Virus record (IMG/VR): IMGVR_UViG_3300017773_000157
Span: 1-22,621 of that record
Origin: a virus
Length of the DNA: 22,621 bases
Direction: 5' to 3' (one strand)
Shown: in pieces, positions 1,430 to 18,200 of the stretch
Layout: every line of letters begins with the position of its first letter
Position numbering within the stretch: the stretch's first letter is position 1
The notes under the pieces: generated by a model
Told to the model about the DNA's origin: nothing
What the model saw: only the letters and a program-made list of their open reading frames with translations
The model's database searches: none
Program-made: the position numbers and the translations under genes

Positions 1430-1873
1430 ATGACTACAGAATTAATTTCAGATAAAACCCTTCAGGATACCAGATCTAAGATCACTGGTACTACTAGGCA
1501 GTACAGAGACCTTTCTTTGGGATTCAGGGTGCACCCTGAGTATGGCGATATATCGCCTGTTAAAGATTTAGAGGCAATCAAAAACTCTATCAGAAATATC
1601 TTAAAAACAAATCGTGGAGAGAAACCTTTTGATCCAAACTTTGGGTGTGGTTTAAAAAACTATTTATTTGAACCAGCTGATGGTATCACAAAAGCATCTA
1701 TGCGTAGAGAGATAATGTATTCTATTGGGATTCAAGAGCCAAGGGTCGAAGTAACTGATGTTGCTATTGAAGATTACCCTGATAAAAACGCATATGCGAT
1801 TACGATATCTACGGTAATTGTAAACACACAACAACAATTTGACCTTCAACTATTATTAGAGAGATTAAGGTAA
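1430..1873 (+). CDS. 25: Baseplate wedge subunit gp25
   Basis: gp25 is the small sheath-initiating wedge protein (homologous to type VI TssE) that binds gp6 at the inner baseplate. The diagnostic features are DLSLGFRVHPEYGDI (residues 27-41), the region before the gp25 core, and NRGEKPFDPNFGCGLKNYLFE (residues 61-81), the classic gp25 fingerprint R-G-x-x-P-F-x-P-x-F-G. The length of 147 aa is close to T4 gp25 (132 aa). The ATG at 1430 is the only sensible start: an in-frame stop lies at 1409, and later starts would cut the conserved core. No Shine-Dalgarno sequence lies within the usual distance, and a late promoter box ends five bases upstream, so the gene may be translated from a leaderless message. 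Its stop overlaps the gp6 start by one base. Confidence 0.95.
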   Translation: MTTELISDKTLQDTRSKITGTTRQYRDLSLGFRVHPEYGDISPVKDLEAIKNSIRNILKTNRGEKPFDPNFGCGLKNYLFEPADGITKASMRREIMYSIGIQEPRVEVTDVAIEDYPDKNAYAITISTVIVNTQQQFDLQLLLERLR

Positions 1874-3708
1874 TGGCGCAAACAGACCTAACAAAACTAG
1901 ACTTTGATCAGATAAAAGATTCTATCAAAGAATTTTTAAAGAGCCAAGACGAATTCACGGATTACGATTTTGAAGGTTCTGGTCTGAATGTATTGATGGA
2001 CGTTCTAGCCTACAACACGCACTACAATGCATTACTAGCACATATGACTCTTAATGAGTCCGACCTTGCTACCGCTCAAGTTAGATCTAATGTTGTTGCC
2101 CGTGCCCAGTCTTTGGGTTATATTCCTAAATCTAAAAAGGCTTCTACAGTCACTCTTGATATTACAGTTACAGGTACAGCGCAAACAGCAAACAGAATTA
2201 CTCTGAAGCGAGGGTATAAAGTAAGTGGTAAAATTAATAACAAGACTTACTACTTTGTAGTTCTATCAGATGCAACAGCTGTGAAGTTATCTAACAACAC
2301 ATATAAGTTTACTAACATTCCATTATATCAAGGTGCTCTTAAAACAGAAACTTTCCGTACTGATGGTCTTGCTCCATTCCAGAAGTTTGAGATATCCTCT
2401 GATGATGTAGATATGGAGACTTTAAGTGTTACTGTTTTTGAAACTGAAAATCAACTTGCTGGGGAAGCATATGCTTTCTTCAATAAAATTAACGAGACTA
2501 GACCAGACTCCGAGGTCTATTTCTATAACGAGAATAATTTTGGTAGGTATGAATTTTACTTCGGGGACAATTACTTAGGTAAAAGACCACCAAGCGGATC
2601 AAGGGTAGCTGCAGAATATTTGACGACCGAAGGTAAAGAAGCTAATGGGATTACTACATTTTCTTCTGCGGGTTCAATAGAAAATATCTCTGCAATCTCT
2701 ATAGCATTATCACCTAGTAGTGAGCGGTCTGTTTCTGGCTCCGATAAAGAGAATACAGAATCTGTAAGATTTAATGCTCCGATCAATTATGCAACTCAAG
2801 ACCGTGCCGTAACTGCTGACGATTATCGTTCTTTGCTTATCCGTGAGTTTACTGACATCCAAGATATATCTGTTTGGGGCGGTGAAGATAACGACCCCCC
2901 AATTTTCGGGAAGGTGTTTGTTGCTCTGGCTCTTAAGAATCAAGAAAGGGTTACAGAGACATTCATCAATAACGCTAAATTATTCTTGAAGGATAAGAAC
3001 GTTGGTGCGATTACACCTGATGTAGTCGAAGCCGAATACACAAACCTTGAAATTGAAGTGGACTTTAAATTCGATACCAACAAGAGTAAACTTACTTCTG
3101 GTGAGTTGGAAAGTAAAGTGACCGAAACTATCACCAAGTATAACGAAGATAATCTACTTTCGTTTAATGGTATTTTCCGTATGTCGAATCTTCTTTCTCT
3201 GATTGACAATGCAGATTCTGGGATTATAAACTCTGTTATACGAACAAGAATGTATAAGAGGTTCAGACCATTCCCTTTGAAGGCAGAAGATTATACAATT
3301 AATTACCCGAACGCTCTTTATATCTCTACTTCAGAAGAGCCGACAATCAATTCTAGCGTTTTCTTATTAGATGGCGTTGAATGTAGACTTAGTGACGAGC
3401 CTATAGATGGGCAGTCTAGTAGAAGAATCTTTATAGTGAATAACGCTACGAACTTAAAAATTTCCAAGTACGCAAATGTCGGTAACATAGACCCAGTAAA
3501 AGGTACTGTGAACCTTAAGAATATAAAATTCGACCTTTCTAACTTTATTACCATTTATGCTAAACCAGACAGCTTCGATATCAGCCCTAAATATAAGCAG
3601 TTATTAAATATACCAACTGATACAATTAAAGTCACGTCTGAGATAGATACGGTATCGCTACTAGGATCTACTGGATTATCTGGCTATCAAACGTTTACGA
3701 GACACTAA
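1873..3708 (+). CDS. 6: Baseplate wedge subunit gp6
   Basis: gp6 forms the continuous inner ring that holds the wedges of the baseplate together and contacts gp25 and gp7. The protein is 611 aa (T4 gp6 is 660 aa). The N-terminal segment, LDFDQIKDSIKEFLKSQDEF followed by DYDFEGSGLNVLMDVLAYNT and the helix with HYNALLAHMTLNESDL (residues 9-65), is the conserved start of gp6/gpJ-type wedge proteins. The stretch RAVTADDYRSLLIREF (roughly residues 310-325) with the following DISVWGGEDNDPP is also typical of the family. Start and stop codons are shared: ATG at 1873 overlaps the gp25 stop, and TAA at 3706-3708 directly abuts the next ATG. This tight spacing fits stoichiometric production of wedge parts. 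I see no insertions. Confidence 0.94.
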   Translation: MAQTDLTKLDFDQIKDSIKEFLKSQDEFTDYDFEGSGLNVLMDVLAYNTHYNALLAHMTLNESDLATAQVRSNVVARAQSLGYIPKSKKASTVTLDITVTGTAQTANRITLKRGYKVSGKINNKTYYFVVLSDATAVKLSNNTYKFTNIPLYQGALKTETFRTDGLAPFQKFEISSDDVDMETLSVTVFETENQLAGEAYAFFNKINETRPDSEVYFYNENNFGRYEFYFGDNYLGKRPPSGSRVAAEYLTTEGKEANGITTFSSAGSIENISAISIALSPSSERSVSGSDKENTESVRFNAPINYATQDRAVTADDYRSLLIREFTDIQDISVWGGEDNDPPIFGKVFVALALKNQERVTETFINNAKLFLKDKNVGAITPDVVEAEYTNLEIEVDFKFDTNKSKLTSGELESKVTETITKYNEDNLLSFNGIFRMSNLLSLIDNADSGIINSVIRTRMYKRFRPFPLKAEDYTINYPNALYISTSEEPTINSSVFLLDGVECRLSDEPIDGQSSRRIFIVNNATNLKISKYANVGNIDPVKGTVNLKNIKFDLSNFITIYAKPDSFDISPKYKQLLNIPTDTIKVTSEIDTVSLLGSTGLSGYQTFTRH

Positions 3709-6700
3709 ATGTCAAATAAAGAAATCACAAGAGTTCCCGAGATACTTCCAGATAATTTGGCGGCAGAGTCTGTCGAATTTGTAACATTCCTTAAAAAGTA
3801 TTATGAGTGGTTGGGACAAGAAGGTAATCCTTCACACGACATAGACCGATCACTAACGCAAAGAACTCTTGATAATGCTGTTGACTTTTATCTCACTTCA
3901 TTATATAATGAACTTGGGTATGGGTTTGTTTTAAATAACGACACAAACCAACAAAATATTGTCAATAACCTAGCAGAAATATATTCTGCGAAAGGTTCGT
4001 TACAATCTGTTAAGGTTATGTTCAGGGCATTATTTGGTGAAGAGATTGACATCAAATTACCTAAAGAGCAAATTTTTAAAGCATCTTCTGGTAATTGGCT
4101 CAGTGAATATTCTGTAATTGTAGAGTTAAATGAAGGCGACCTATACAGCGCAGTCGGTAAGTATGTTGAGGTTGAAACTACTTTCCCTAACACCCCCACA
4201 CAAACTTTCGATGTAGAAGTTAAACGTGTAGAGCAAAGAGAGGAGACTTCCGAAGCTCAAGTGTATGAAGTCTATGTTTCACGATACTTTGCTGGTTTCT
4301 TCTATTTTAATAGTGTTTTGAAATATGGTGATGTGCGAGCAACTCTGCAACCATCAATGTCAGAAATACTGAATATTGAAACTGGCGGTACTGGTTTCCG
4401 AGTTGGCGAAACTTTCCCAATCAATGATTATGTTCGGTCAAATGGGTTTAATACGCAAGCGAAGTTACCTACTAACTTTAGACGGAGAGTATATTCTAGG
4501 TCTGGGTTGCGAAGAATTGATATCGAAGATGTTGATACTGATGTACGTTCTGATGGTACGATAACGCAGACTATTAAATTAGGAGATATTGTAACCACTA
4601 GAATTATACGTGGTACAAATTCGATAACTCGTATAGAGCAAGGCGGTCAGGTAAAAGAGTTTAAAGAAACTTTACCAGGAATTCCTACGCCCAATTTGGC
4701 TATTAACTGGGATGCTATAGCGACAGCAATGACCGAACTCGCAGGTTTCGATGGATTAGATGGTACAGTAAGTATTTTCTTATACGATTTCTTAAAAGAA
4801 ACCCCAATCGCAACTTATGTAGACGGTACTACAGACCCATTATTTGATACAACTGGAGGTGCAACTCAATACGCTAGAGGCGATTTCGATAGAGATGGTA
4901 CAGTCTCTATTGACGATGCTACCAGTTTGATAAAATATCTATTTGACATAGACCCAACTCTTCATGCTGGTGATACCGACAGATACGATAGAATAACAGA
5001 TGTAATTACCGCTTGGAATGCATACACCACAGCTAACGGATTATCAGAGTATGCATTTGCTCTTAGATCTCCGAATACTTCAGGTGATGCTTGGGATCCG
5101 ACGTATTCTATACCCATAGACGTTGGTGTAGATCTTTTAAGATTATCGGTAGATGCAGGTGCATACTCCTTATCAGCGCAAACAGCGCAACTGAATGAGT
5201 TGGCAGGTTCTACGCAATATAAAAAAGGTGACATTGACAATGACGGAACCGTTGATACCGACGACCTTGTAACACTTATTAAATATCAAGACCCAGTTTT
5301 AAGAACTTCTTTAACTGCTAATCAAATTGCTTGGATAACAGAATACCTTGATACTGGTAGTGTGTCAGATTTAGACCTCATGGTCTCTGCGATGGCTCTT
5401 GACTTCCAGACAAACAGAAGAAACCAACTACACGACTTCTTACTTCAAACTGATGGAGATTTTGCTACTGGTCGTGTTCGTGGAGATATTAACCAAAATG
5501 GTAGAATTACTCTTGATGACGTTACACTTCTATTAAGACGTGCTAGTGGTTATTACGACCTATCGAGCGGTGGTATAGAAAAGGTAGAAGTAACAACGCT
5601 GGTGGGTGGGTACAAAGAAGGAACTGGGGCAGTATCATTAAGCAACTCTGGAACTGGTAGTGGTGCCGAGATAAGACCTATAATCAGAAATGGAGTTATC
5701 ACTGAATTTGATACTGTTTCTGCTGGTAAAGGTTTAAGGAAGGCGATTGGGTTAATTCAAGTATTACCCGAATCTCATATAAGCAATGTGCCTGACGGAT
5801 GGAGATCTGTCGCATTCTCTCAAGGTATTTCTTATTACGAAATTGATTTAACTATCGCAAATGGTAAGATTCAAGGTCTTTCAGCTCCAGGGATAATGTA
5901 TAACTTCCCTTCAAACCCACTTGAGGCTATTCAACCTACGTGGGAAGAATCTAGTATAACCCCTGTAATAAATTCAAGTAATGAGATTACTGGGTTTACT
6001 GTCAATGATGGCGGTACTGGTTACGATTCGACTACAGCATCTGTAGTAATAGTAGACGTTGAGGGTGAGGGTGCTGTACTTACTGCTAATCCTGTTTCCG
6101 TCAAAGATGGCGTTATTGATAAAATCAATATTACAGATGGTGGCTCTAATTATACTGATGCTACAATATCCGTAACGATAACAGGCGCAGGCGGTAGTGG
6201 TGCTACGCTAGTTCCAGTTATCGTTAATGGAGTTTTAACTGCTTTAACAATCCAAGATGGCGGTGAAGATTACGACCCTTCAACAAACGGCATTACTATA
6301 ACTGACTCTGGCACTGGAGCTGGGGCAAATATAGGCTCGTTTGAAATAATTGACGGTATAGTTGATTCTATTTCTGCCCCTTCTAATGGCGGTAGTAACT
6401 ATACTTCAAACGTTCGAGCATATATCGAAAGAGGGAACTCAGTATCTGCGACTCCAAAAATTGATACTATAGTTCAAGATGGGGTTATTACTGAAGTAAT
6501 TGTAGATAAACAAGGTATTAATTACCCAAGCACCACGACAGTAGCAAATACTTTCCAAAGGCACGATCCTACACTAAAGGCAAATTTAAATTCTAGTGGC
6601 GGAATTACTAGTATTGTATCCACTGGCGATGACGCAAGTAAATCATTATGCGGTTGGCAGTCTGCCACCATTACTGTAACAGATTTAGCTGCAGAAGCAG

Positions 6701-9700
6701 AAACTTCTTCAGGAGCAGGTGATGCTATCGGTGGTACTGGGGCGAGTATCACTGTAGATATTGATGATGGTAAGATCTCTGGGTTCGTCATTGGTGCGGC
6801 AGGTAGCGGATATATTGAGCCTCAAGTTACAATAACTGGCACAAGACTCAACTCTACAATTGTAGCGAACACCACTCCAGATTATGTTGAATGGATTGAC
6901 GAGGTTATTGGCGAACCTTTATTAGGTAGTGTATACAACCCACTTCTCGTGGATGGACCTGGAACTGGGGGGAGTGCTCGTGTAACTCGAGTCGGGTCAA
7001 ATGGCGAATTGCAAGAATTAAAACTAACCAGCTTTGGATATAATTACCCAGATGTTTTCACAACTACCATAGTTCCTGAAGATTCGTCGGGTGCTAATGC
7101 CAAGGTCACTTTTAGATCTGGCGTTGTTGGGATTACTTCTCCAAATTATGTTGACCGCAAAGGTTTCCTATCTGATATCATTAAGATACAAGATAATGAC
7201 TTGTATCAAGAGTTCTCATATGTTGTAGAAACTGGTATCGACTTTGATATATTCGAAGACTTAATTAAGAAGTCTGTTCACCCTGCAGGTATGAAGATAT
7301 TTGGCGAACAAAGTATCAATAGTCAGTTTAGTATAGAAGTACAACAATTCAATGTTGCAAGTACATATTATAATCGTTATTTCGCAGACGCTACAGATAA
7401 TGGTGAAATCTTAGGTGGTGATGGTACTTCAACTAGGAATACTGATGGCGATATCTATCATATGGATAAGGATCTTCCTAGAGTAGAAGACCCTACTTCT
7501 GAGACTATAGACCCTGTATCTGAGAAAGAAACCTACCAGATAGATAAGGATATGACTTCTTTTGGTAATCCGCAATATGTACAGATAGCTGATGCTGAAG
7601 ATGTAAAAGAAACATATCAGTTAGATAAGGATATGACCGCTACTGGTAATGCTCATTATGTTCAGATTGCAGATGCTGAAGATTTAAAAGAAACATATTC
7701 AATGGATAAGGATATTCCTAGACAAGAAGATCCTGAATCAGAAACCATTGATCCTGTGTCTGAGAAAGAAACATATTCAATGGATAAGGATATTCCTAGA
7801 GTAGAAGATCCTACTTCTGAGACTATAGACCCTGTATCTGAGAAAGAAACATATGCTCTAAGCAAAGGGTTAATTGTAGATGTAAAAAACGCATTTGCTC
7901 TGAAAGAAACATATTCTCTAAGCAAAGGGTTAATTGTAGATATACCAGATGCATTCGATCTCAAAGAAACATACCAGTTTGATAAGGATCTTCCTAGAGT
8001 AGAAGACCCTACTTCTGAGACTATAGACCCTGTATCTGAGAAAGAAACGTTCTTACTAGCAAAACTTCAATTTGATTCTATTACTCAGACTGCTGATGGT
8101 GATGCTGACGATTTCTCATTATCTAAACCTTTGTCTGATTCTTTAATTCAAATAAGATCTGGCGATGATGACGATTTCTCATTATCTAAACCACTTTCTG
8201 ATATACATTATGCGCTTTCATTAGATGATAAAACTGTAGAAAAAGATTTGCCAGCTGCAGATGACCCAACTGACGATACTACAGATACAACAGATTCTGA
8301 CAATTATTCTATACTAAAAGATTTCCCACCAGCTGATGATCTTACTGACGATACCGTAGATCTATCTGAAGATGATTCTGATACAAAACTATTTTTGAAA
8401 GGTTTAGATGACGAGACTCAAAATGTTGCAGGTGGGGATGAATCATCATTCCTTGTAAGTAAACAATTTTTCGACACTTCTACAACTTCCGATATTTTCT
8501 CGGTCGCAGACGCTGATATTTACCTAATAACTAAAAGTGAAGCCGATGCTATTAGTGCTAATGTTGATGAAGAAACTGATAAGTCTTTTGCTAAACCGTT
8601 TACAGAAAGTATTAATAACCTACTAAGTGATAGAGCTGAAATGGAGTTCTCTATTTCCAAAGGGTCTTTTACAGAAAATATTAATGTTTCTGCAGAAGAA
8701 AATGAAACCGTTACGGTATTAAGAGCCAAAGGGGTTGACACAGATTTCCCAGATGCAGAAGATGCCATACTTGGTAAACAATTATCTAGAGGATTATCCG
8801 ACTCAACTATAGGTTTCTCGACCAATAAAAATAATGATCTGCGTGTCGATCTTGGGGTTTCTTTATCAAGGGGTCTTCAAGATACTCTAACAGACAATGT
8901 TAGTGAAGAAATAGAGCATATAGATTTTAGTAAAGAATTATTCGATACTAATGACTTTGCCAGAAAACCAATAACGATTCATGCGGAGTTTGCTAATTCT
9001 TTTCGGGGTCCAAATTATGATAATGAGGCGGTATTAAGGTTATTAGAAAACCCACAAGATTCTTCTGATGCTGATATCAATCTTGATGAAAATAGCGAAT
9101 TAAATGATACAAATAGAGATAGGTCTCAAGATCCTCGATTACAAGAATATGATTATTGGGATTCTGCAGAATTCCGCACATCATCCAGTTCGAATTATAC
9201 TCGACCATTTTCTAACCCATCTGGTAATTTCAGAGGTGGGCAAGGCAATGGTCTTACTACAGACTATTTCGGCACATCTGGATCGGTCGTGTTGAAATAC
9301 TATGCTGAAGCCGTTCTAGTTGCCTATGTCGGAGACACAATAAAACTTGAATATTCAAAAACAGTTGGAGTTACCAAGCATGATCCAGCTAATGGGTATT
9401 GGCTTAAGACATCTAAAACCACTGATACGACGACTGATAATGTAAGTAGTGGAGTGACTAACCAAGGGATGGTTAACAACGGCACCACCAACTCAGGATA
9501 TACTAATCCTGCAACTAGTAGCGGAACTTTGACATGGGACACTTCTGGGGCTGATGCTGGCAATTATTATTTAATGGGTGGTGGGTTAACTGTAGACGGA
9601 AGCACTGACGCTCAAGATAACTCATGGATTCAAATATTACTTCTAGACCCTTATGATATCAACGAAGATGTAGATATTGCTAAAGGTAAGGCTCTTTCAG

Positions 9701-9969
9701 ATACGCTAGATATAGACCAAGACGAAGAAGAATTTGACTTTTCTTTGTCTAGATCGATTAGTGATTCAGCTTCAGTATCAGATATATTTTCTTTGGCAGA
9801 CGCTGATATTTATAGTATAAATAAAGGTATCCAAGATCAGGTGTCAAACGTTGCTAACAATGACAGCGGATCTGTGGTAAATACGAGATCTTGTATAGAA
9901 CTAGGTTATTTCGCAACAACAGATCTCGACTACGAGTATTCTTCCGAAACGTCGGGAGCAACATTTTAA
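3709..9969 (+). CDS. Giant modular baseplate wedge protein in the gp7 position, 2086 aa
   Basis: The gene follows gp6 directly, as gene 7 does in T4, but T4 gp7 is only 1032 aa. Residues 1-215 (FVTFLKKYYEWLGQEGNP, YSAKGSLQSVKVMFRALFGEE) and residues 1150-1213 (GFLSDIIKIQDNDLYQEFSY; HPAGMKIFGE at 1191-1200) look like the structural core of wedge proteins from marine T4-like phages. Between them lie three dockerin-like calcium loops (391-403, 507-519, 592-604) and a series of about 42-residue GxGY repeats (about 630-1140). Residues 1245-1760 are acidic tandem repeats of the type (Y/F)xxDKD..R.EDP..ETIDPVSEKET and DxFSLSKPLSDS. A globular beta-rich segment (about 1764-1982) interrupts them, and the repeats resume to the end. 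No catalytic motif is seen. The start has no gap from gp6 and a weak ribosome site, suggesting coupling. The gp7 label rests on position and recalled similarity, so a gp7 equivalent is likely but not certain. Confidence 0.68.
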   Translation: MSNKEITRVPEILPDNLAAESVEFVTFLKKYYEWLGQEGNPSHDIDRSLTQRTLDNAVDFYLTSLYNELGYGFVLNNDTNQQNIVNNLAEIYSAKGSLQSVKVMFRALFGEEIDIKLPKEQIFKASSGNWLSEYSVIVELNEGDLYSAVGKYVEVETTFPNTPTQTFDVEVKRVEQREETSEAQVYEVYVSRYFAGFFYFNSVLKYGDVRATLQPSMSEILNIETGGTGFRVGETFPINDYVRSNGFNTQAKLPTNFRRRVYSRSGLRRIDIEDVDTDVRSDGTITQTIKLGDIVTTRIIRGTNSITRIEQGGQVKEFKETLPGIPTPNLAINWDAIATAMTELAGFDGLDGTVSIFLYDFLKETPIATYVDGTTDPLFDTTGGATQYARGDFDRDGTVSIDDATSLIKYLFDIDPTLHAGDTDRYDRITDVITAWNAYTTANGLSEYAFALRSPNTSGDAWDPTYSIPIDVGVDLLRLSVDAGAYSLSAQTAQLNELAGSTQYKKGDIDNDGTVDTDDLVTLIKYQDPVLRTSLTANQIAWITEYLDTGSVSDLDLMVSAMALDFQTNRRNQLHDFLLQTDGDFATGRVRGDINQNGRITLDDVTLLLRRASGYYDLSSGGIEKVEVTTLVGGYKEGTGAVSLSNSGTGSGAEIRPIIRNGVITEFDTVSAGKGLRKAIGLIQVLPESHISNVPDGWRSVAFSQGISYYEIDLTIANGKIQGLSAPGIMYNFPSNPLEAIQPTWEESSITPVINSSNEITGFTVNDGGTGYDSTTASVVIVDVEGEGAVLTANPVSVKDGVIDKINITDGGSNYTDATISVTITGAGGSGATLVPVIVNGVLTALTIQDGGEDYDPSTNGITITDSGTGAGANIGSFEIIDGIVDSISAPSNGGSNYTSNVRAYIERGNSVSATPKIDTIVQDGVITEVIVDKQGINYPSTTTVANTFQRHDPTLKANLNSSGGITSIVSTGDDASKSLCGWQSATITVTDLAAEAETSSGAGDAIGGTGASITVDIDDGKISGFVIGAAGSGYIEPQVTITGTRLNSTIVANTTPDYVEWIDEVIGEPLLGSVYNPLLVDGPGTGGSARVTRVGSNGELQELKLTSFGYNYPDVFTTTIVPEDSSGANAKVTFRSGVVGITSPNYVDRKGFLSDIIKIQDNDLYQEFSYVVETGIDFDIFEDLIKKSVHPAGMKIFGEQSINSQFSIEVQQFNVASTYYNRYFADATDNGEILGGDGTSTRNTDGDIYHMDKDLPRVEDPTSETIDPVSEKETYQIDKDMTSFGNPQYVQIADAEDVKETYQLDKDMTATGNAHYVQIADAEDLKETYSMDKDIPRQEDPESETIDPVSEKETYSMDKDIPRVEDPTSETIDPVSEKETYALSKGLIVDVKNAFALKETYSLSKGLIVDIPDAFDLKETYQFDKDLPRVEDPTSETIDPVSEKETFLLAKLQFDSITQTADGDADDFSLSKPLSDSLIQIRSGDDDDFSLSKPLSDIHYALSLDDKTVEKDLPAADDPTDDTTDTTDSDNYSILKDFPPADDLTDDTVDLSEDDSDTKLFLKGLDDETQNVAGGDESSFLVSKQFFDTSTTSDIFSVADADIYLITKSEADAISANVDEETDKSFAKPFTESINNLLSDRAEMEFSISKGSFTENINVSAEENETVTVLRAKGVDTDFPDAEDAILGKQLSRGLSDSTIGFSTNKNNDLRVDLGVSLSRGLQDTLTDNVSEEIEHIDFSKELFDTNDFARKPITIHAEFANSFRGPNYDNEAVLRLLENPQDSSDADINLDENSELNDTNRDRSQDPRLQEYDYWDSAEFRTSSSSNYTRPFSNPSGNFRGGQGNGLTTDYFGTSGSVVLKYYAEAVLVAYVGDTIKLEYSKTVGVTKHDPANGYWLKTSKTTDTTTDNVSSGVTNQGMVNNGTTNSGYTNPATSSGTLTWDTSGADAGNYYLMGGGLTVDGSTDAQDNSWIQILLLDPYDINEDVDIAKGKALSDTLDIDQDEEEFDFSLSRSISDSASVSDIFSLADADIYSINKGIQDQVSNVANNDSGSVVNTRSCIELGYFATTDLDYEYSSETSGATF
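4690..5570 (+). other. Three dockerin-like (EF-hand Ca-loop) units inside the gp7-position protein
   Basis: Three copies of a loop with D-x-(D/N)-x-(D/N)-G-x-(I/V)-x-x-(D)-D are visible: GDFDRDGTVSIDD (residues 391-403), GDIDNDGTVDTDD (507-519) and GDINQNGRITLDD (592-604). Each is followed by a short hydrophobic helix (ATSLIKYL, LVTLIKY, VTLLLRRA), as in type I dockerins, and each is spaced 85-116 residues from the next. Two are preceded by the same TQY(A/K)(R/K) motif, and two by a matching helix (LYDFLKET, LHDFLLQT). This implies internal duplication. A fourth degenerate loop may be FDGLDGTVS near residue 347. Confidence 0.75.
5940..7140 (+). repeat. GxGY beta-repeat array in the gp7-position protein
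   Basis: A series of about 42-residue units of the form GxIxxxxIxDGG(S/T)(G/N)Yxxxxxxxxxxx(G)xGA. The aromatic turn motif begins at 6013 (GTGY), 6142 (GSNY), 6262 (GEDY), 6391 (GSNY) and 6514 (GINY), giving spacings of 129, 120, 129 and 123 bases, with further copies at about 6805 (GSGY) and 7036 (GYNY). The unit probably forms a small beta-structure that packs as a rod. The same unit occurs in gp8. Confidence 0.72.
7465..7532 (+). repeat. 68-bp repeat, copy A
   Basis: Encodes DKDLPRVEDPTSETIDPVSEKE. Reading base by base, it is identical to copy D (7981-8048) over all 68 positions and differs from copy C at two. Confidence 0.85.
7705..7772 (+). repeat. 68-bp repeat, copy B (diverged)
   Basis: Same unit with several substitutions: it encodes DKDIPRQEDPESETIDPVSEKE. 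It sits next to copy C, separated by an ATATTCAATG spacer. Confidence 0.8.
7783..7850 (+). repeat. 68-bp repeat, copy C
   Basis: Differs from copies A and D at two positions, giving Leu to Ile and one silent GAC to GAT. Same flanking residues KETY(S) as the other copies. Confidence 0.85.
7856..7975 (+). repeat. 60-bp tandem duplication (LSKGLIVD unit)
   Basis: Two adjacent 60-base units, 7856-7915 and 7916-7975, each starting with the same 26 bases (CTCTAAGCAAAGGG and on to TTGTAGAT) and each encoding LSKGLIVD...AF.LKETY. They lie between 68-bp copies C and D. Confidence 0.8.
7981..8048 (+). repeat. 68-bp repeat, copy D
   Basis: Exact copy of copy A although 516 bases apart, which implies very recent duplication or gene conversion. 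Confidence 0.85.
9000..9655 (+). other. Globular beta-rich segment inserted in the repeat array, possibly cupredoxin-like
   Basis: Residues about 1764-1982 of the gp7-position protein break the acidic repeats. The part with VLKYYAEAVLVAYVGDTIKLE (about 1861-1881), GYWLKTSKTTD (1896-1906), GVTNQGMVNNGTTNSGY and SGTLTWDTSGADAGNYYLMGG (about 1938-1958) resembles, in order and spacing, cupredoxin-like domains found in marine phage structural proteins. The usual His of HPFYIKT and the Cys/His of the YYQC.H segment are replaced here, so metal binding is doubtful. The fold call is an inference from pattern memory. Confidence 0.4.
9807..9814 (-). promoter_or_regulatory. Possible antisense late promoter, part of a palindrome
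   Basis: TATTTATA on the + strand is TATAAATA on the - strand. Together with the box at 9816-9823 it forms the 17-base perfect palindrome TATTTATAGTATAAATA. Transcription leftwards would run antisense through the end of the 2086-aa gene. It may be chance in AT-rich coding sequence. Confidence 0.3.
9816..9823 (+). promoter_or_regulatory. T4-type late promoter inside the 3' end of the giant gene
   Basis: Exact TATAAATA in the 11-mer AGTATAAATAA, the same 11-mer as the boxes at 1417 and 22457. The expected start is at about 9829, giving a 165-base leader before the 179-aa gene at 9994. Within the host gene the box is read as codons for Ser-Ile-Asn. Confidence 0.65.
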
Positions 9970-10548: not shown

Positions 10549-12219
10549 ATGGCAACTGTACTAAAGAATGATGTACATAATAGTATTGCGGAGATTGTAT
10601 ATAACGGTATTCTAAACAGAACATCGAGACCATACTTTTTCTTAGGGAAAACATTATCTTGGGATGGTGGAGATATTGCACCGCCCACGCCTAATGCCTC
10701 TAGGGAATATGAATCCGAGACAAGAAGTTCTATTGTAGGGATGAGATACGTTACTATTTCTGATGTATCTTTCGCTATTGATAGAGAAAATTGGTCATCT
10801 GGTACAGTTTATGATATGTATGATGATAGATACTCGTCGGAATTTCCTGCGCCCTCTGGGGCGCAGGATATTGCGGATGCTAAGATGTTTGTAATAACAT
10901 CAGATTTCAATATCTACAAATGCATATCAAATAACTATAATCAGCCTTCAACCGTACTGCCTACTGGTACTCCCGAAACTGCATATATCGGACCACTAGC
11001 TGATGGGTATGTCTGGAAATATATGGGAACGCTTGATGAAGTTCAACGGAACAAATTCTTGACTCCTGAATATTTACCAGTAACTAATTCAACTAGCGGT
11101 TTTTATCAATCAGGTATTGCATTGAACCCGATTAAAGTTTCTGGTGGGTCAGGTTATGTTGCTACCAATACAACTGTTATAGTGCAAGGAGACAATGGTT
11201 CGCCTGTCAACAATGCAGTAATAACTCCAGTTATAGATCCATCAACAGGAGAAATTTCATCATTGACAGTCGAGAATCCAGGAACTGGTTATTCAACAGC
11301 ATCTATTTTAATAACCACTCCAGATCCAGGTCAGGCTCAAGGCGCAGGTGCTCAGTTTACCGCTCAAATAGATCAAGGTTCTCTTGTATTATCTAACGTG
11401 GGGGCATCAGCTATAGATGGTCAATTAAGTTTCGTCTATGTTAATGATGGAGGCTCTGGCTACTCGCAAAATACGACTGTTACTATATCTGGCGATGGAT
11501 CTAACGCAACTGCAACTGCTATTATAGCGAATGAAGTCATAACTGGCATACAGTTAAATAATCGTGGTACAGGATACACCTTTGCTACTGTAACAATAAC
11601 TGATAGCGGTGGCGGTCAAGATGCTCAAGTTGAGGTTATCATTTCCCCAGTTGGTGGGCATGGTAATGATCTTGTAAAAGAATCCTTTGCGCATACTCTT
11701 GGTTTCCAGATAACCACTGCTGATGAAATTAACCAAGGTTTCACTCTAGAAAATGATTATAGGCAATCTGGTCTTATATTTGACCCCGACTCTTTTGTAG
11801 AAGATGGGGCTCAACGTTCTAGATTTTATGGAGCATATGGATCTGCTTGTTATAGGGTAGATATTCCTACAGCTAACTTGGCTTCAGGGATAGATATTAC
11901 AGATTTTACGCTAGATCAAAAGATCTACAACCAAACAACTGGAAAATATTTGGTTGTCATAGCAAAAGAAGATTATGAAGTAGGTGCTTCTGTAGTTGGA
12001 GTATCTTTATTGCTTCAATCAATAGATGGATCTGCCCCAGAAGTTGGGGATGTCTATCAAAATGCTGACAGTAGTAATTTATTTACTATACCAGCATCAA
12101 GTGTTACGAACCCGACAATCGATAAGTTTTCAGGGTCTATGGTGTTTATCAATAACCGAACACCCTTCAGAAAAAATATTGAACAAATCGTCAACCTTCG
12201 TACTTACATTGAATTCTAA
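10549..12219 (+). CDS. 8: Baseplate wedge subunit gp8, enlarged by repeats
   Basis: gp8 is a dimeric wedge protein that binds gp7 and gp10 in T4. The N-terminal part (NRTSRPYFFLGKTLSWDGGD, residues 24-43), the motif DGYVWKYMGTLD (about 152-163; T4 has DGYVWEYLFEIP) and the C-terminal SGSMVFINNRTPFRKNIEQI (residues about 528-547; T4 has SGEMIYMENRPPI followed by an EEIN stretch) support the call strongly. At 556 aa it exceeds T4 gp8 (334 aa). Most of the excess is a block at about residues 195-375 with GxGY beta-repeats (motifs at 200-203, 245-248, 302-305 and 340-343), the same kind as in the gp7-position protein. The ribosome site is TAAGG about 10 bases upstream, and the gap to the previous gene is 15 bases. 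Confidence 0.9.
   Translation: MATVLKNDVHNSIAEIVYNGILNRTSRPYFFLGKTLSWDGGDIAPPTPNASREYESETRSSIVGMRYVTISDVSFAIDRENWSSGTVYDMYDDRYSSEFPAPSGAQDIADAKMFVITSDFNIYKCISNNYNQPSTVLPTGTPETAYIGPLADGYVWKYMGTLDEVQRNKFLTPEYLPVTNSTSGFYQSGIALNPIKVSGGSGYVATNTTVIVQGDNGSPVNNAVITPVIDPSTGEISSLTVENPGTGYSTASILITTPDPGQAQGAGAQFTAQIDQGSLVLSNVGASAIDGQLSFVYVNDGGSGYSQNTTVTISGDGSNATATAIIANEVITGIQLNNRGTGYTFATVTITDSGGGQDAQVEVIISPVGGHGNDLVKESFAHTLGFQITTADEINQGFTLENDYRQSGLIFDPDSFVEDGAQRSRFYGAYGSACYRVDIPTANLASGIDITDFTLDQKIYNQTTGKYLVVIAKEDYEVGASVVGVSLLLQSIDGSAPEVGDVYQNADSSNLFTIPASSVTNPTIDKFSGSMVFINNRTPFRKNIEQIVNLRTYIEF
10845..10868 (+). other. GC-rich perfect hairpin within gp8
   Basis: A 10-base stem TCCTGCGCCC pairs perfectly with GGGCGCAGGA across the 4-base loop TCTG, unusual in this AT-rich gene. 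There is no T-run after it, so it does not look like an intrinsic terminator. It encodes PAPSGAQD, so the bases may simply reflect coding constraint. Confidence 0.6.
11110..11675 (+). repeat. GxGY beta-repeat block in gp8
   Basis: Four units with turn motifs GSGY (begins 11146), GTGY (11281), GSGY (11452) and GTGY (11566), each followed by a Thr/Ile-rich strand and a G(A)-rich loop. This block accounts for most of the extra length compared with T4 gp8 and is followed by the conserved GGHGND segment. Confidence 0.75.
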
Positions 12220-12273: not shown

Positions 12274-15200
12274 ATGGCGATTACCAACAATTATAACACA
12301 GAGCCGTATTATGACGACTTTAACCCTGATGATGATAAGAATTTTCATAGGATTCTTTTCCGCCCAGGAGTTTCGGTTCAGGCTCGTGAGCTGACACAGC
12401 TACAAACTATTCTACAAAATCAAATAGCAAGACATGGAGAACACTTTTTTAAAGAAGGTGCTGCAGTCACTGGTGCTGAATTTGGATTTACTAATAAGTT
12501 CCATGCGGTTAAACTGAACCCTACAAATGGAACTCAATCGGTAGAAACATACCTTGACGAATTACTAGACCTAGTAGTGCGTGGTTCTAAGAGCGGTATT
12601 GAAGCTAGGATTGTTCACGTAGAGCCTGCAACAGCTGTTGACCCGACAACTATCTATGTAAACTACGTCGGCAGCGGTATCGATGGTAAAAGTTACTCTT
12701 TCCAAGATGACGAATCTTTACTTTGGCAAAGAACTGACGAAGATATTGCTGCAAATACAATTGATATTAGCGGTATTGCTGAAGGGAATCCTCTAGCGGT
12801 AACGATACCTTCAAATGCGACTTCGGATGGATCTTCTGCGTCTATAGAAAGCGGTGTAATCTTTGCGAAGGGTAATTTTGTTTATATAGAAAAACAAAGA
12901 ATTATTTTATCGAAATACACTAGCGACCCAACAGCGAGAATAGGGTTAGAGATATCAGAATCTACAGTTTCCGCTGATGAAGATCAGAGTCTGCTTGACA
13001 CTGCTCTTAATGCCCCAAACTATGCTGCACGTGGTGCAGACCGATACGTTATCGAATTAAAACTGGTATCTAAACCAGTTACAGATACAACATCGGATAA
13101 CTTCATAGAACTACAGCGTGTAGCTGGTGGTTTACAGCAGGCAAAAGCTAAGACATCGGAGTATGATGTTCTTGGGGATAATCTAGCCAGACGTACACAT
13201 GACGAGTCAGGCGATTATACAATTAAACCTTATGAATTACAACTAAAAGAAACCCTTGATGACGGCATTAATCAGGGAGTTTATTCAGCAGGAACTACTA
13301 CTGATTCTGGCGAGTTAGCTTCTAACGATTCTATGACTTTACAAGTTTCTTCTGGTAAGTCATATGTAAAAGGATTCGAGCTGACTACTACTGCTCCATC
13401 TTTCCTCGACATACCAAAACCAAGAACCTTTGAGAGTATTGAAGACGCAACTACAGTTGTTCAGGTTGGTAACTATGTAGAATTATCTAATGTTAGTGGT
13501 ATGCCTGAAACCGTTGGCGACACGACTATCAACGAATACGAACTTATAGAATTGAAGAAAGAAGTCAGTGGCAGTTCTTCAGAAACTATTGGCGTAGCAC
13601 GTGCTAGAGACTTTATAACTTCGGCAGCACTAGATACAGACAGCAACGATATCCTAGACGCTAATGCTCAATTTAATTGCTACTTATTTGACATCAAGAT
13701 GTTTTCTAAAATTAATATTAGCGTTACAGCCTTTCAAGCTGCTGCTGTTGCTCAGGGAACGCTAATAACTGGTGAAACGTCAGGTGCTACTGCATATATC
13801 CATAGCACTGATGCTACTGGTATCTATGTAACTTCTGTATCGGGCAACTTCTTCCCGACTGAAAAGTTAATATCATCTAACAGCTTCGAAACTAATGGCT
13901 ATTTGGTAGAAAACGCAGATACAACCGATCACCTTACTGTTTCGAGTGTTACATCTTTCGCTTTTGAAAATGTTAAGAGTCTATTCCAAGCTGATGCAGT
14001 TCATGATTTTGAAGGTGATGTAGTTCTGGATAACCTATTTACCCTTGATGGATCGGTTACTGTTCATAGCGCAACCGTCACAGGTTTCAGCACTAATTTC
14101 TTGTCTCAGTTACAAGTTGGGGATGCTTTACTATTGCCTAGTGGTTCAAATCAGGCATTAGAAACAAGATATGTTGCCTCTATAACAAACAATAATTCGC
14201 TGACTTTAAATGCTCATGTTAGCAATAATCTAACAGTAGCAGTTCCCTTAATAAGGATACGTGCTGGTCTTAAAGATCAAGAGAAAAACTTGATGCTTCG
14301 CTTGTTAGACAAGCCTTTTGTAAAGACCCTCAAGACCACAGTTAATAATTTCCAGCCAGAGAACGATGTTGTTGTTTCTAGACAATTCCAAGGACAAGTC
14401 GGGGCTAGTGGTTTAGCACTAACAGGCGCAACTGGAGATCAATTCAAAGCTAAGTCCAATGTTAATTATCAGGTTACTGTCTTATCTCAAGGTACTGCTT
14501 CTATACCAGATGGGTCTTTAATGGATGTAGAAGAGCTAACATTTAGCGGAGAAGGAACTAATCAGGTTACTATTTCTGGAGGTGGTTTAGCTGCCAACTC
14601 CGTGATACGAGTCAATGCTTGTTTACAGAAACAATCACAAAAAGAAAAATCTAAGTCTCTACAGAAATCTGCTTTATTGCGGGTTTCAAATAAGTCTGCT
14701 CAAAATTCTGGTAACCTACCTTATGGTACTTCTGCTCACCACAAAGAGATTTCTCTTGGCGTTGCTGACATTTATAAAGTAGTTGCCATTTATGATTCTG
14801 GTACTCCTGGAACTGACGCATCTCCGCCTTCAGTAGCGGTAAGTTCTACTGTTGGATCTTTTTCTAGGAACGAACAAATAAGGGGATCTGAATCTGGTGC
14901 TCTCGGTCTTGTTTTGACTATTGGTAATACTGTTGAATTTGTTTCCCTAAATGGATTAAATTTCCAAATTGGAGAAACTATCACTGGTCAAACTACAAGT
15001 TCTACTGCCGTTGTTCAAACTGTGGCAGTAGGGAGCAGGAATATTACTAACAGGTTTAAGTATGATACTGGTCAGCGTGATAACTACTATGACATCGGTA
15101 AACTAATTCTTAAGAACGGACAGCGTGGTCCTGAGGGTGATTTATATGTAATCTACGATTACTTTACTCATGGATTTGGTAATTTCTTCACTGTTGATTC

Positions 15201-18200
15201 ATATGTAGATATTCATTATAAAGATATACCAGCTTACACTTCTACACGTATTGACCCCGAAAGTCCAATGCCCACAGGTATATTTGATCTAAGGTCTTCA
15301 TTAGACTTTAGACCTAGAGTAGCCAATGCTGCTGCTACTATTACCAATGATGTTCGAGTTGTAACAGGTTATTCTTTCAATATCAATAGCAGAAACTTCT
15401 CTCCAGATTCTAATAGCGGTGCTTCTACTGTTAATACAGTAAGAGATAATTCCAACTTCAATTTCGATTATGAATATTATCTTGCTAGAAGAGATTCTGT
15501 TTACCTAACGACTGATGGCGAGTTTGTAGTAATACAAGGTAACGATAGCGAAAACCCAAAATACCCCGATACTGTCGATAATGCTATGAGGTTGGCTGAT
15601 ATAAGCATGCCTCCATATGTTGCTGATGTCCGTGATGTTTCTATTAAGACTTTCAGTAATAAACGATTTACTATGAAGGATATTAGTACATTAGAGAAAA
15701 GAATCAATAATATTGAATATTATACTTCTTTGAATCTTCTAGAAGTTTCAGCTAACACCCTTCAAGTCAAAGACGAAAATGGGTTAGATCGATTTAAATC
15801 TGGTTTCTTGGTTGATAACTTTGGTGGTCATAAAACTGGTGATGTCCTTCACCCAGACTATCGTTGCGCTATCGACATGTATAAGCGTATTCTTCGTCCA
15901 AAATATGTTATGAAGAATATTACATTAGAAGAAAAGGCGGTAACTGACGATGAAAGGTTATCAGCTGGGTATGTTGTTACAAATGGCGATCTCGCTATGT
16001 TGCCATATACTCACGTAACTTCTATCGAACAAAAGTTTGCTTCTACTATTGAGAACCTAAACCCTGTCTTAAACTTCGGTTGGACTGGTACTATGACCTT
16101 GTCGCCATCTTCGGACGAGTGGTTCGAGATAAACAGACTACCTGACCTAACAGTAAATGTTGAGGGTAATTTCGATACATTGATTGCTCAAAATGCTGAT
16201 GCGCTTGGAACTGTATGGGACGCAGCGACTACTAACTGGACTGGTATTACGACTACAGATTTAGTTGGTCCCAGAATCAGAGAAAATACTGGTAACTTCC
16301 GAGCCGATTTCGTAAGGGGCTTCGGTCGTCGTGTTCTTCAACAGCAACAAGAGACTGAGCTTGGTGTACAAACCAGAAACGGCATCGAAACAAACGTTAT
16401 TGAACAAGTCGATATCACCTCTAATGGCGATCAGCTAAGAAGTACTGCAATCATACCATACATGAGACAAAAAGAAATTACGTTTGAAGGTAATGGCTTA
16501 AGACCTCATACTCAAGTTTATCCTTTCTTTGATAATGTGGATGTATCAGATTACTGTATTAGAACTTCTGGTGCTATCGCCCCTAAACCTGGAGCAACAG
16601 TAACTAGAACTCAAGAAGTAACTCCTGCTTTTAATACTGTTAGAAGAGTATTAATATCTTTTGACAAGAACAATAATCTAAGAAATAGAATCAGCTTGGC
16701 TAGAAACATACAAGGTAAGTTGAACGGATCGTACTCTACAGTTGCTTCTGTATTGACTAGTGCTAGAAACACTACTGACCGTGATGTTATGGAGTTTCTG
16801 TTTGATGCTAATTCAGACTTAGAACCAAACGAGTTTGGGGAATTGTTCTTAGCATTTACCTTTTCTCATGAGGATAACAGAGCATTTAACAAGTGGTTCC
16901 AATTATCGGAAATACAATTCTTTAACGAGAACTATAGCGAAAACCCGAACTTGTCTTCAGGTAATCCACCCCCAGAGGGTTTCCCTCATACTAGCGTTGA
17001 AAGCTGGAACCTTTACAACTCATTAATCGACAGCACTCAATTTGCAGAAGTTGTTAAATTCAACAATATGAAAAATGTCGAGAACCTTGTTGATGGTGGT
17101 GCTCAACTTGCAGGTTACTTAATCGACGGCATCAACTATCGATCCGATCATAGTGGTTATTCTGAGGCTCAAATTGTAAAAGGCGTTAAAAAAGCTGATT
17201 GTATTGTCAAACTTCGTGGTGGAGTTCGTACAGTAGATTACGTGGAAAACCTAGAAAGATTTATCAGTAATGACGATATTGATCCAAAAGCACTAATGAC
17301 AGATGCTTCTGGTCACATTTCTGGTATATTCCAAATACCAGATCCAAACGTTGTGGGTAATCCTCAATTTAGAACAGGCACAAGACTACTCAGGTTGACT
17401 TCGAGTGATGTCAATACTAAAGAACTTGTAGATACATTTGCTCAATCTAACTATACTGCTTCTGGTATATTGAATACTGTACAGGAGACATTTACTGCTA
17501 CTCGTAACGGTCGTGTTGAGACTAGACAAGTTCAAGAAAATACAGAGGTGAGTAGATCGAGGGATTTAGGTCTTGTTCAGGTTGGTTGGTATGACCCTCT
17601 TGCTCAATCTATTATGCCTTCAGTTCCAGGTGGAGAATTTATTACTAAGATCGATGTATTCTTCTCATCTAAAGATGAATCTGCTCCTGTAACTATTCAG
17701 CTGCGAGAAATGGAAAACGGTTTACCTACTCGAAATGTATTACCACATGGTTCTAAAACCTTATATCCAGACAATGTAGTGACTTCTCAGGTTGGCGCCA
17801 ACGCAACGACATTTGAGTTTGATTCTCCTGTTTATGTGAAAGAAAACCAAGAGATCTGTATAGTATTAATGACCGACTCTATCGGTTATACTGCTTGGAT
17901 CTCAAGACTTGGTGACAAAGACATAAATGGCGTTGATGATATATCTGAGCAACCTTACTTGGGTGTTCTATTTAAATCTCAGAACAACTCTACTTGGACA
18001 GCTTACGATTACGAAGACCTCAAATTCACAGTTTATCGTGCTGAATTTGATACTGGTGTTAATGGTGTAGTAACTTTAGAAAATCAAGAGATTCCTGATA
18101 AACTTCTAGAGTCTAACCCTGTGGTAGCAGATGCGTCTAGTAGTATCCTCCGTATCAATCATAAAAATCATCAGATGTATTCTGGCGTAACTGGTCAAGA

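What the first reader, a model, noticed from the sequence alone, without database searches (positions are those of the whole stretch)
7465..8048. Near-identical 68-bp coding repeats in a recombination-prone array
Copies A and D are identical over 68 bases, copy C differs at two and copy B at several; a 60-base tandem unit lies between C and D. Such identity implies recent copying and predicts length variation of the extension between isolates, possibly tuning reach or surface exposure of the baseplate.
Basis: seen in the sequence. Interest (0 to 1): 0.5.

Follow-up and report, generated by a model that had tools for sequence, protein, structure and literature searches.

The report
Recombining repeat arm in phage baseplate protein
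A large tail-baseplate protein of a marine T4-like phage carries a chain of short repeated segments that relatives rewrite by swapping and dropping copies, so the repeats are real and recently copied, but phage tail proteins with such repeats are already known.

Summary
In detail: copies A (7465-7532) and D (7981-8048) are identical over 68 bp, C differs at 2 positions, B at 13, and a 60-bp tandem pair lies between C and D. They belong to a longer array of 17-27-residue units with an aromatic-x-hydrophobic-x-Lys core in a 2086-aa baseplate-wedge-like protein encoded between gp6 and gp8. Nine other phage lineages have core-enriched tails at the same place, each with its own unit. Units resemble others of the same protein more than those of relatives (55 of 74 nearest neighbours). 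In one metagenomic group, one of seven contigs lacks exactly one 78-bp unit and another carries five clustered changes that copy a unit 309 bp away. Recent copying and occasional length change are thus supported. Five other near-identical pairs show no length change, and no close relative of the window's own array was found. A role in reach or exposure is untested; structure prediction failed. Verdict: real; a new member of a known kind, recombining repeats in phage tail proteins; moderately interesting.

The parts
3709..9969 (+). 2086-aa ORF that contains the array; baseplate-wedge-like protein in the gp7 position between gp6 (1873-3708) and gp8 (10549-12219)
   Evidence: PF23786 Baseplate_wedge E 5.7e-9; PHROG baseplate wedge and virion structural families
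6955..7353 (+). conserved domain containing HPAGMKIFGE, directly before the array; shared with hundreds of cyanophage structural proteins
   Evidence: tblastn hits in 321 phage records; alignment A1
7456..8838 (+). repeat array: units of about 17-27 aa with core [YFW]-x-[FLMIV]-x-K and acidic spacers
   Evidence: 16 core matches after HPAG against a shuffled mean of 0.84, maximum 4 of 200 shuffles; unit list
7465..7532 (+). copy A (identical to D)
7525..7686 (+). 81-bp tandem pair, unit KETYQ[IL]DKDM...YVQIADAED
7705..7772 (+). copy B (13 differences from A)
7783..7850 (+). copy C (2 differences from A)
7842..7961 (+). 60-bp tandem pair, unit KETY[AS]LSKGLIVD
7981..8048 (+). copy D (identical to A)
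8097..8202 (+). next, more diverged pair of units (DDFSLSKPLSD), 88% identical over 43 bp
9316..9663 (+). C-terminal probably beta-rich domain, conserved in L010 and L012; only weakly like a plastocyanin-type domain
   Evidence: alignment A3; 23% identity, E 0.015 to a domain of L134 that matches PF00127; no Pfam match of its own
9793..9966 (+). conserved C-terminal cap (DIYSINKGIQ ... ELGYF ... DYEYSSE)

Best explanation
The four copies are units of an intragenic repeat array in a T4-like phage baseplate-wedge protein. The array is a variable insert between a conserved wedge domain and a conserved C-terminal cap. Each unit has a core (aromatic-x-hydrophobic-x-Lys), possibly a short beta strand, and an acidic spacer. 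Homologous recombination between units (unequal exchange and short-tract gene conversion) copies, deletes and homogenises them in frame, so each phage lineage ends up with its own unit sequence. The protein most likely uses the array as an extended arm that holds the C-terminal domain and cap away from the baseplate. Shown: the array, its position, within-lineage homogenisation, one unit deletion and one conversion-like tract in relatives. Inferred: that the same kind of event made A and D, and the arm function.
For: A and D are identical including all 22 codons, while gp6 of L010, the nearest relative with an array, differs from the window's at 84 of 211 fourfold sites. Units are more alike within than between proteins (mean identity 0.355 against 0.213; 0 of 500 label shuffles reach the difference; 55 of 74 nearest neighbours in the same protein), although the HPAG region is 83-89% identical among window, L010 and L012. 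L013 lacks one 78-bp unit at a 26-bp direct repeat. L090 differs from L012 at 7 of 3216 positions, 5 of them within 9 bp, and the 43 bp around them exactly match a unit 309 bp upstream. Core motifs after HPAG exceed all 200 shuffles in all six proteins tested. The longest exact repeats lie after HPAG in six of six: 28-68 bp against 11-17 bp before it. Published precedent: at least two recombination events proposed inside a tail gene of cyanophage S-TIM4 during laboratory evolution (PMC6224464, section 9 read).
Against: No near-identical relative of the window's array was found. Copy number is constant in 6 of 7 contigs of the best group and in five other near-identical pairs; some of these contigs may come from one water body or from reassembled samples, so they are not clearly independent. 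Nineteen of 74 units have their nearest neighbour in another protein. L012's longest exact repeat (42 bp) is only just above the maximum of its synonymous resampling (39 of 200 trials). AlphaFold2 was unusable (mean pLDDT 31.9 and 33.5), so the strand and arm ideas rest on weak ground. All relatives that show changes are metagenome assemblies, and the reads were not seen.
Confidence: 0.72

Rival explanations
1. The identity of A and D is an assembly artefact: a repeat was wrongly duplicated or copies were collapsed.
For: The contig is a metagenomic virus record and 68 bp is longer than some assembler k-mers (general knowledge); no reads were available.
Against: The stretch between A and D holds distinct units and stays in frame. 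Similar arrays recur in relatives, including the cultured phage BUCT-ZZ01. L090's tract shares only 3 bp with the donor after its last change, too little for an assembler to jump back (inference). L013's deletion lies at a 26-bp repeat although tandem repeats of 38 and 34 bp at the same spacing are intact.
Confidence: 0.08
2. The units are kept alike by selection on the protein (each core binds the same partner), not by recombination.
For: The core is kept across lineages: the Lys by definition of the search, the aromatic and hydrophobic positions mostly.
Against: Synonymous sites of A and D are identical too (0 of 10 fourfold sites differ; codon identity by chance about 5e-9), and the spacers, not only the cores, are homogenised within a lineage (spacer-only test).
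Confidence: 0.07
3. The array is a multivalent docking strip: each Lys core binds another virion protein such as a fibre or whisker, so copy number sets how many are carried. This concerns function and is compatible with recombination as the origin of the copies.
For: A kept core with a variable spacer fits repeated binding sites better than a passive linker (inference); a large tail-fibre-type gene lies downstream.
Against: No partner is known; the number of proximal units differs widely between proteins (7 to 18), and nothing here tests binding.
Confidence: 0.2

Closest known systems
S-TIM4 ORF108 (YadA-domain tail protein of a T4-like cyanophage), intragenic recombination under laboratory evolution (PMC6224464; section 9 read)
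   Same: T4-like cyanophage tail or baseplate gene; clusters of changes that copy neighbouring parts of the same genome
   Different: A different gene with a YadA-like domain; the clustered changes there were synonymous and interpreted as codon adaptation
Phage K8 GP075 baseplate wedge duplications D7, D14, D21 (PMC9887876; passages read)
   Same: Short in-frame tandem duplications in a baseplate-wedge protein, with copy-number variants
   Different: A gp6-like protein with one 7-aa unit; link to host range shown by experiment; no long diverged array
T4 gp37 adhesin domain duplications (Tetart 1996; only the title seen, in the reference list shown)
   Same: Duplication of a small domain in a tail protein of phage T4
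   Different: Tail fibre adhesin, not a baseplate-wedge protein
crAssphage BACON domain tandem repeats (PMC6949934; abstract and section 3.4 read)
   Same: Tandem repeats in a phage tail-associated protein, expanded by internal duplication
   Different: A known domain; in cluster 1 the order of domains is conserved, whereas here units are homogenised within lineages
S-PM2p084 and other Kyanoviridae structural proteins encoded between gp6 and gp8
   Same: Same gene position and homologous HPAG domain
   Different: The tail stretches of S-PM2, S-MbCM6, QB2 and Melnitz printed do not show this kind of array (read by eye)

Membership tests
Baseplate wedge protein (PF23786) / Kyanoviridae structural protein of the gp6-gp8 interval | N-terminal match to the wedge profile | tested here: met
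   PF23786 36.3 bits, cut-off 27; the best stretch covers only profile positions 182-221 of 284
Baseplate wedge protein (PF23786) / Kyanoviridae structural protein of the gp6-gp8 interval | Gene order gp25, gp6, this gene, gp8 | tested here: met
   same order, with one further small gene before gp8, in S-PM2 and in the window
T4 gp7 | Sequence homology to T4 gp7 | tested here: inconclusive
   No match to a family or solved structure named gp7; several matched PHROGs are named only 'baseplate wedge subunit'; only the position corresponds. PMC7029224 (passages read) reports T4 gp7 as absent from cyano- and pelagimyophages
VrlC / DUF4815 protein | DUF4815 domain | tested here: not met
   DUF4815 is in the gene at 12274-19443, not in this one; that DUF4815 marks VrlC is an inference from the 'putative VrlC protein' label
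Tail-protein repeat arrays that evolve by recombination | Near-identical in-frame units within one virion gene | tested here: met
Tail-protein repeat arrays that evolve by recombination | Copy-number or conversion variants between close relatives | tested here: met
   Met in the L012 group only: one deletion and one tract among seven contigs; could not be tested for the window's own lineage
Tail-protein repeat arrays that evolve by recombination | Effect on host range or adsorption | not testable with these tools
   needs isolates
Diversity-generating retroelement target | Nearby reverse transcriptase and template repeat | tested here: inconclusive
   No reverse transcriptase among the Pfam and PHROG matches of the nine genes scanned, but the record is only 22.6 kb of a larger genome

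The most novel reading that the evidence does not exclude
The array is a retroelement-free diversification device: the phage keeps a store of variant units inside one baseplate gene and reshuffles them by recombination, changing the length and surface of a baseplate arm faster than point mutation would, as part of adaptation to hosts.
Probability: 0.12. Interest if true: 0.65.

Novelty: new member of a known kind. Interest (0 to 1): 0.4.

Why it matters
It shows, in natural marine phage sequences, unit loss and a conversion-like tract inside a baseplate gene, and helps explain why the C-termini of these proteins differ so much between close relatives. Such arrays can be miscounted by short-read assembly, and they are a testable candidate for rapid change of the host-contact apparatus of marine phages.

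Tried and rejected
Direct search for relatives with the array peptide in viral contigs and in bacterial and archaeal genomes found none. tblastn of the array and of the C-terminal part against phage records found none. The L012 array gave one weak hit (MT839449, E 6e-4, not followed up); ZZ01's array found only itself and L116's nothing. Two further scans with L116 and L107 proteins brought only the contigs already seen. Structure prediction of the HPAG domain plus array and of the C-terminal part failed (mean pLDDT 31.9 and 33.5); I did no fold search on them. No solved structure matches by sequence (one search gives only a chance-level designed protein, E 0.8). A profile of the core was too strict and dominated by the L012 group, so I used a motif count with shuffles. 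No Rfam match, no tRNA, no PADLOC match for the two genes tested. Only two imperfect inverted repeats of 20 bp or more within 300 bp were found, neither in the array. Literature: the listings showed no paper on this repeat family; the library holds open-licence papers only.

Rows dropped before counts: units of more than 34 residues between lysines were not kept and cores closer than 14 residues were merged; only the 74 units of the proximal arrays were compared. In one search, 80 of 176 relatives were returned, and, 80 of 193. One search examined 71 of the 80 loci; the nine left out (L099-L106 and L113) belong to the L010 and L012 groups already read. Of these 71 tails, 13 have three or more core matches and 11 of the 13 exceed all 200 shuffles; L143 and L150 do not. 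The ten lineages are my grouping of near-identical contigs.

Full report
Observation. Copies A (7465-7532) and D (7981-8048) are identical over 68 bp; C (7783-7850) differs at 2 positions and B (7705-7772) at 13. A 60-bp tandem pair lies at 7842-7961 (87%) and an 81-bp tandem pair at about 7525-7686. Without 7441-8970 the longest exact repeat in the window is 15 bp. Synonymous resampling of the same tail gave a longest repeat of 17 bp on average and 32 at most in 300 trials.

Where it lies. All copies are in frame in one ORF, 3709-9969 (2086 aa), between gp6 and gp8. Matches: PF23786 Baseplate_wedge near the N-terminus, one dockerin match and several PHROG baseplate or virion structural families. 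The gene at 12274-19443 carries DUF4815, the one at 19686-22469 a Peptidase_S74 chaperone and the one at 1124-1408 a PAAR motif. The top-listed cultured relatives by gp6 and by the N-terminal part of the DUF4815 protein are Methylophilales phages of the Melnitz group (33% and 45% identity). The window is a whole virus record of 22,621 bases.

What the repeats are. They belong to an array that starts about 60 residues after the conserved motif HPAG. A strict core motif, [YWF]-x-[FLMIV]-x-K, occurs 16 times in the 896 residues from HPAG on and once in the 1190 before it; shuffled tails give a mean of 0.84 and a maximum of 4 in 200. With a looser core, the units are 17-27 residues long and rich in Asp and Glu (25% against 9% Lys and Arg). 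The strict motif is rare in the other eight genes: 3 matches in all.

Relatives. The gp6 scan brought close relatives with a complete ORF at the same place: L010 (gp6 86% identical), L012-L015 (79%), L018, L019 and L026 (56%). All have an array after HPAG, each group with its own unit. Cultured Synechococcus phage BUCT-ZZ01 also has one. A scan with the HPAG domain added L107, L114, L116 and L145 as further lineages whose tails exceed all shuffles. That makes ten lineages in all, the window included. Most other tails are different: of 71 examined, 11 exceed all shuffles, and L073-L089 and L045/L048 carry other short repeats.

Homogenisation. Among 74 proximal units of six proteins, mean identity is 0.355 within and 0.213 between proteins; 0 of 500 label shuffles reach the difference; 55 of 74 units have their nearest neighbour in the same protein, 19 do not. 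With the first eight residues of each unit removed, 58 of 74 do. Window, L010 and L012 share 83-89% of the HPAG region (all). A and D share all 22 codons, while gp6 of window and L010 differs at 84 of 211 fourfold sites. In six of six proteins the longest exact repeats lie after HPAG: 28-68 bp against 11-17 bp. For the window the 68 bp is far above the resampling maximum of 32; for L012 the 42 bp is only just above its maximum of 39 in 200 trials.

Events seen. Seven near-identical contigs of the L012 group cover the array (L012, L013, L014, L015, L090, L096, L098). L013 lacks exactly 78 bp, one unit, at a 26-bp direct repeat; the other six have the same length. L090 differs from L012 at 7 of 3216 positions from HPAG on, 5 of them within 9 bp; the 43 bp around them exactly match a unit 309 bp upstream, and L012's own version has no other match over the tested span. 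I read this as a conversion-like tract. After its last change only 3 bp are shared with the donor, which makes an assembler jump unlikely (inference). Against frequent change: L107/L108, L109/L110, L111/L112, L114/L115 and L010/L095 show no length difference. Independence of these samples is unknown.

Function. Structure prediction was of no use. The array links a conserved domain to a conserved cap, so an extended arm is the simplest reading; a docking strip is the main rival. A domain before the cap is weakly like a plastocyanin-type domain (E 0.015). None of this is tested.

Known precedents. PMC6224464 (section 9 read) reports clustered changes in a T4-like cyanophage tail gene, attributed by its authors to at least two recombination events. 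PMC9887876 (passages read) reports short in-frame duplications in a baseplate-wedge protein linked to host range. PMC6949934 (abstract and section 3.4 read) describes tandem BACON domains in gut phage tail proteins. The present array is a new member of this kind.

Noticed in passing
window 4870-5560 (residues about 388-617 of the 3709-9969 ORF): One dockerin match (PF00404, residues 506-528) and, by eye, two more GDxxxDGxxxxxD-like stretches in the same baseplate protein.
   Followed up: no
L004 (Synechococcus phage ACG-2014b), about 8001-8417: The homologous gene ends shortly after the conserved domain, and the next listed gene begins downstream; relatives S-MbCM6 and QB2 have one long reading frame there, so a frame change is likely.
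   Followed up: no
L073-L089 and L045/L048, after the HPAG-like domain: Other, unrelated-looking short repeats occupy the same C-terminal place (FD-rich repeats; LLLEDG-like repeats), so this position seems prone to repeats in general.
   Followed up: partly
L008 (S-MbCM6) and L009 (QB2): The homologous region is part of very long genes: 21,069 and 18,852 bases in the records.
   Followed up: no
L134 5763-6065: A plastocyanin-like domain (PF00127, E 3.2e-5) at the C-terminus of a related phage protein.
   Followed up: partly
MT839449.1 2903-3508: A weak tblastn match (E 6e-4) of the L012 array to an unannotated phage record from human faeces.
   Followed up: no
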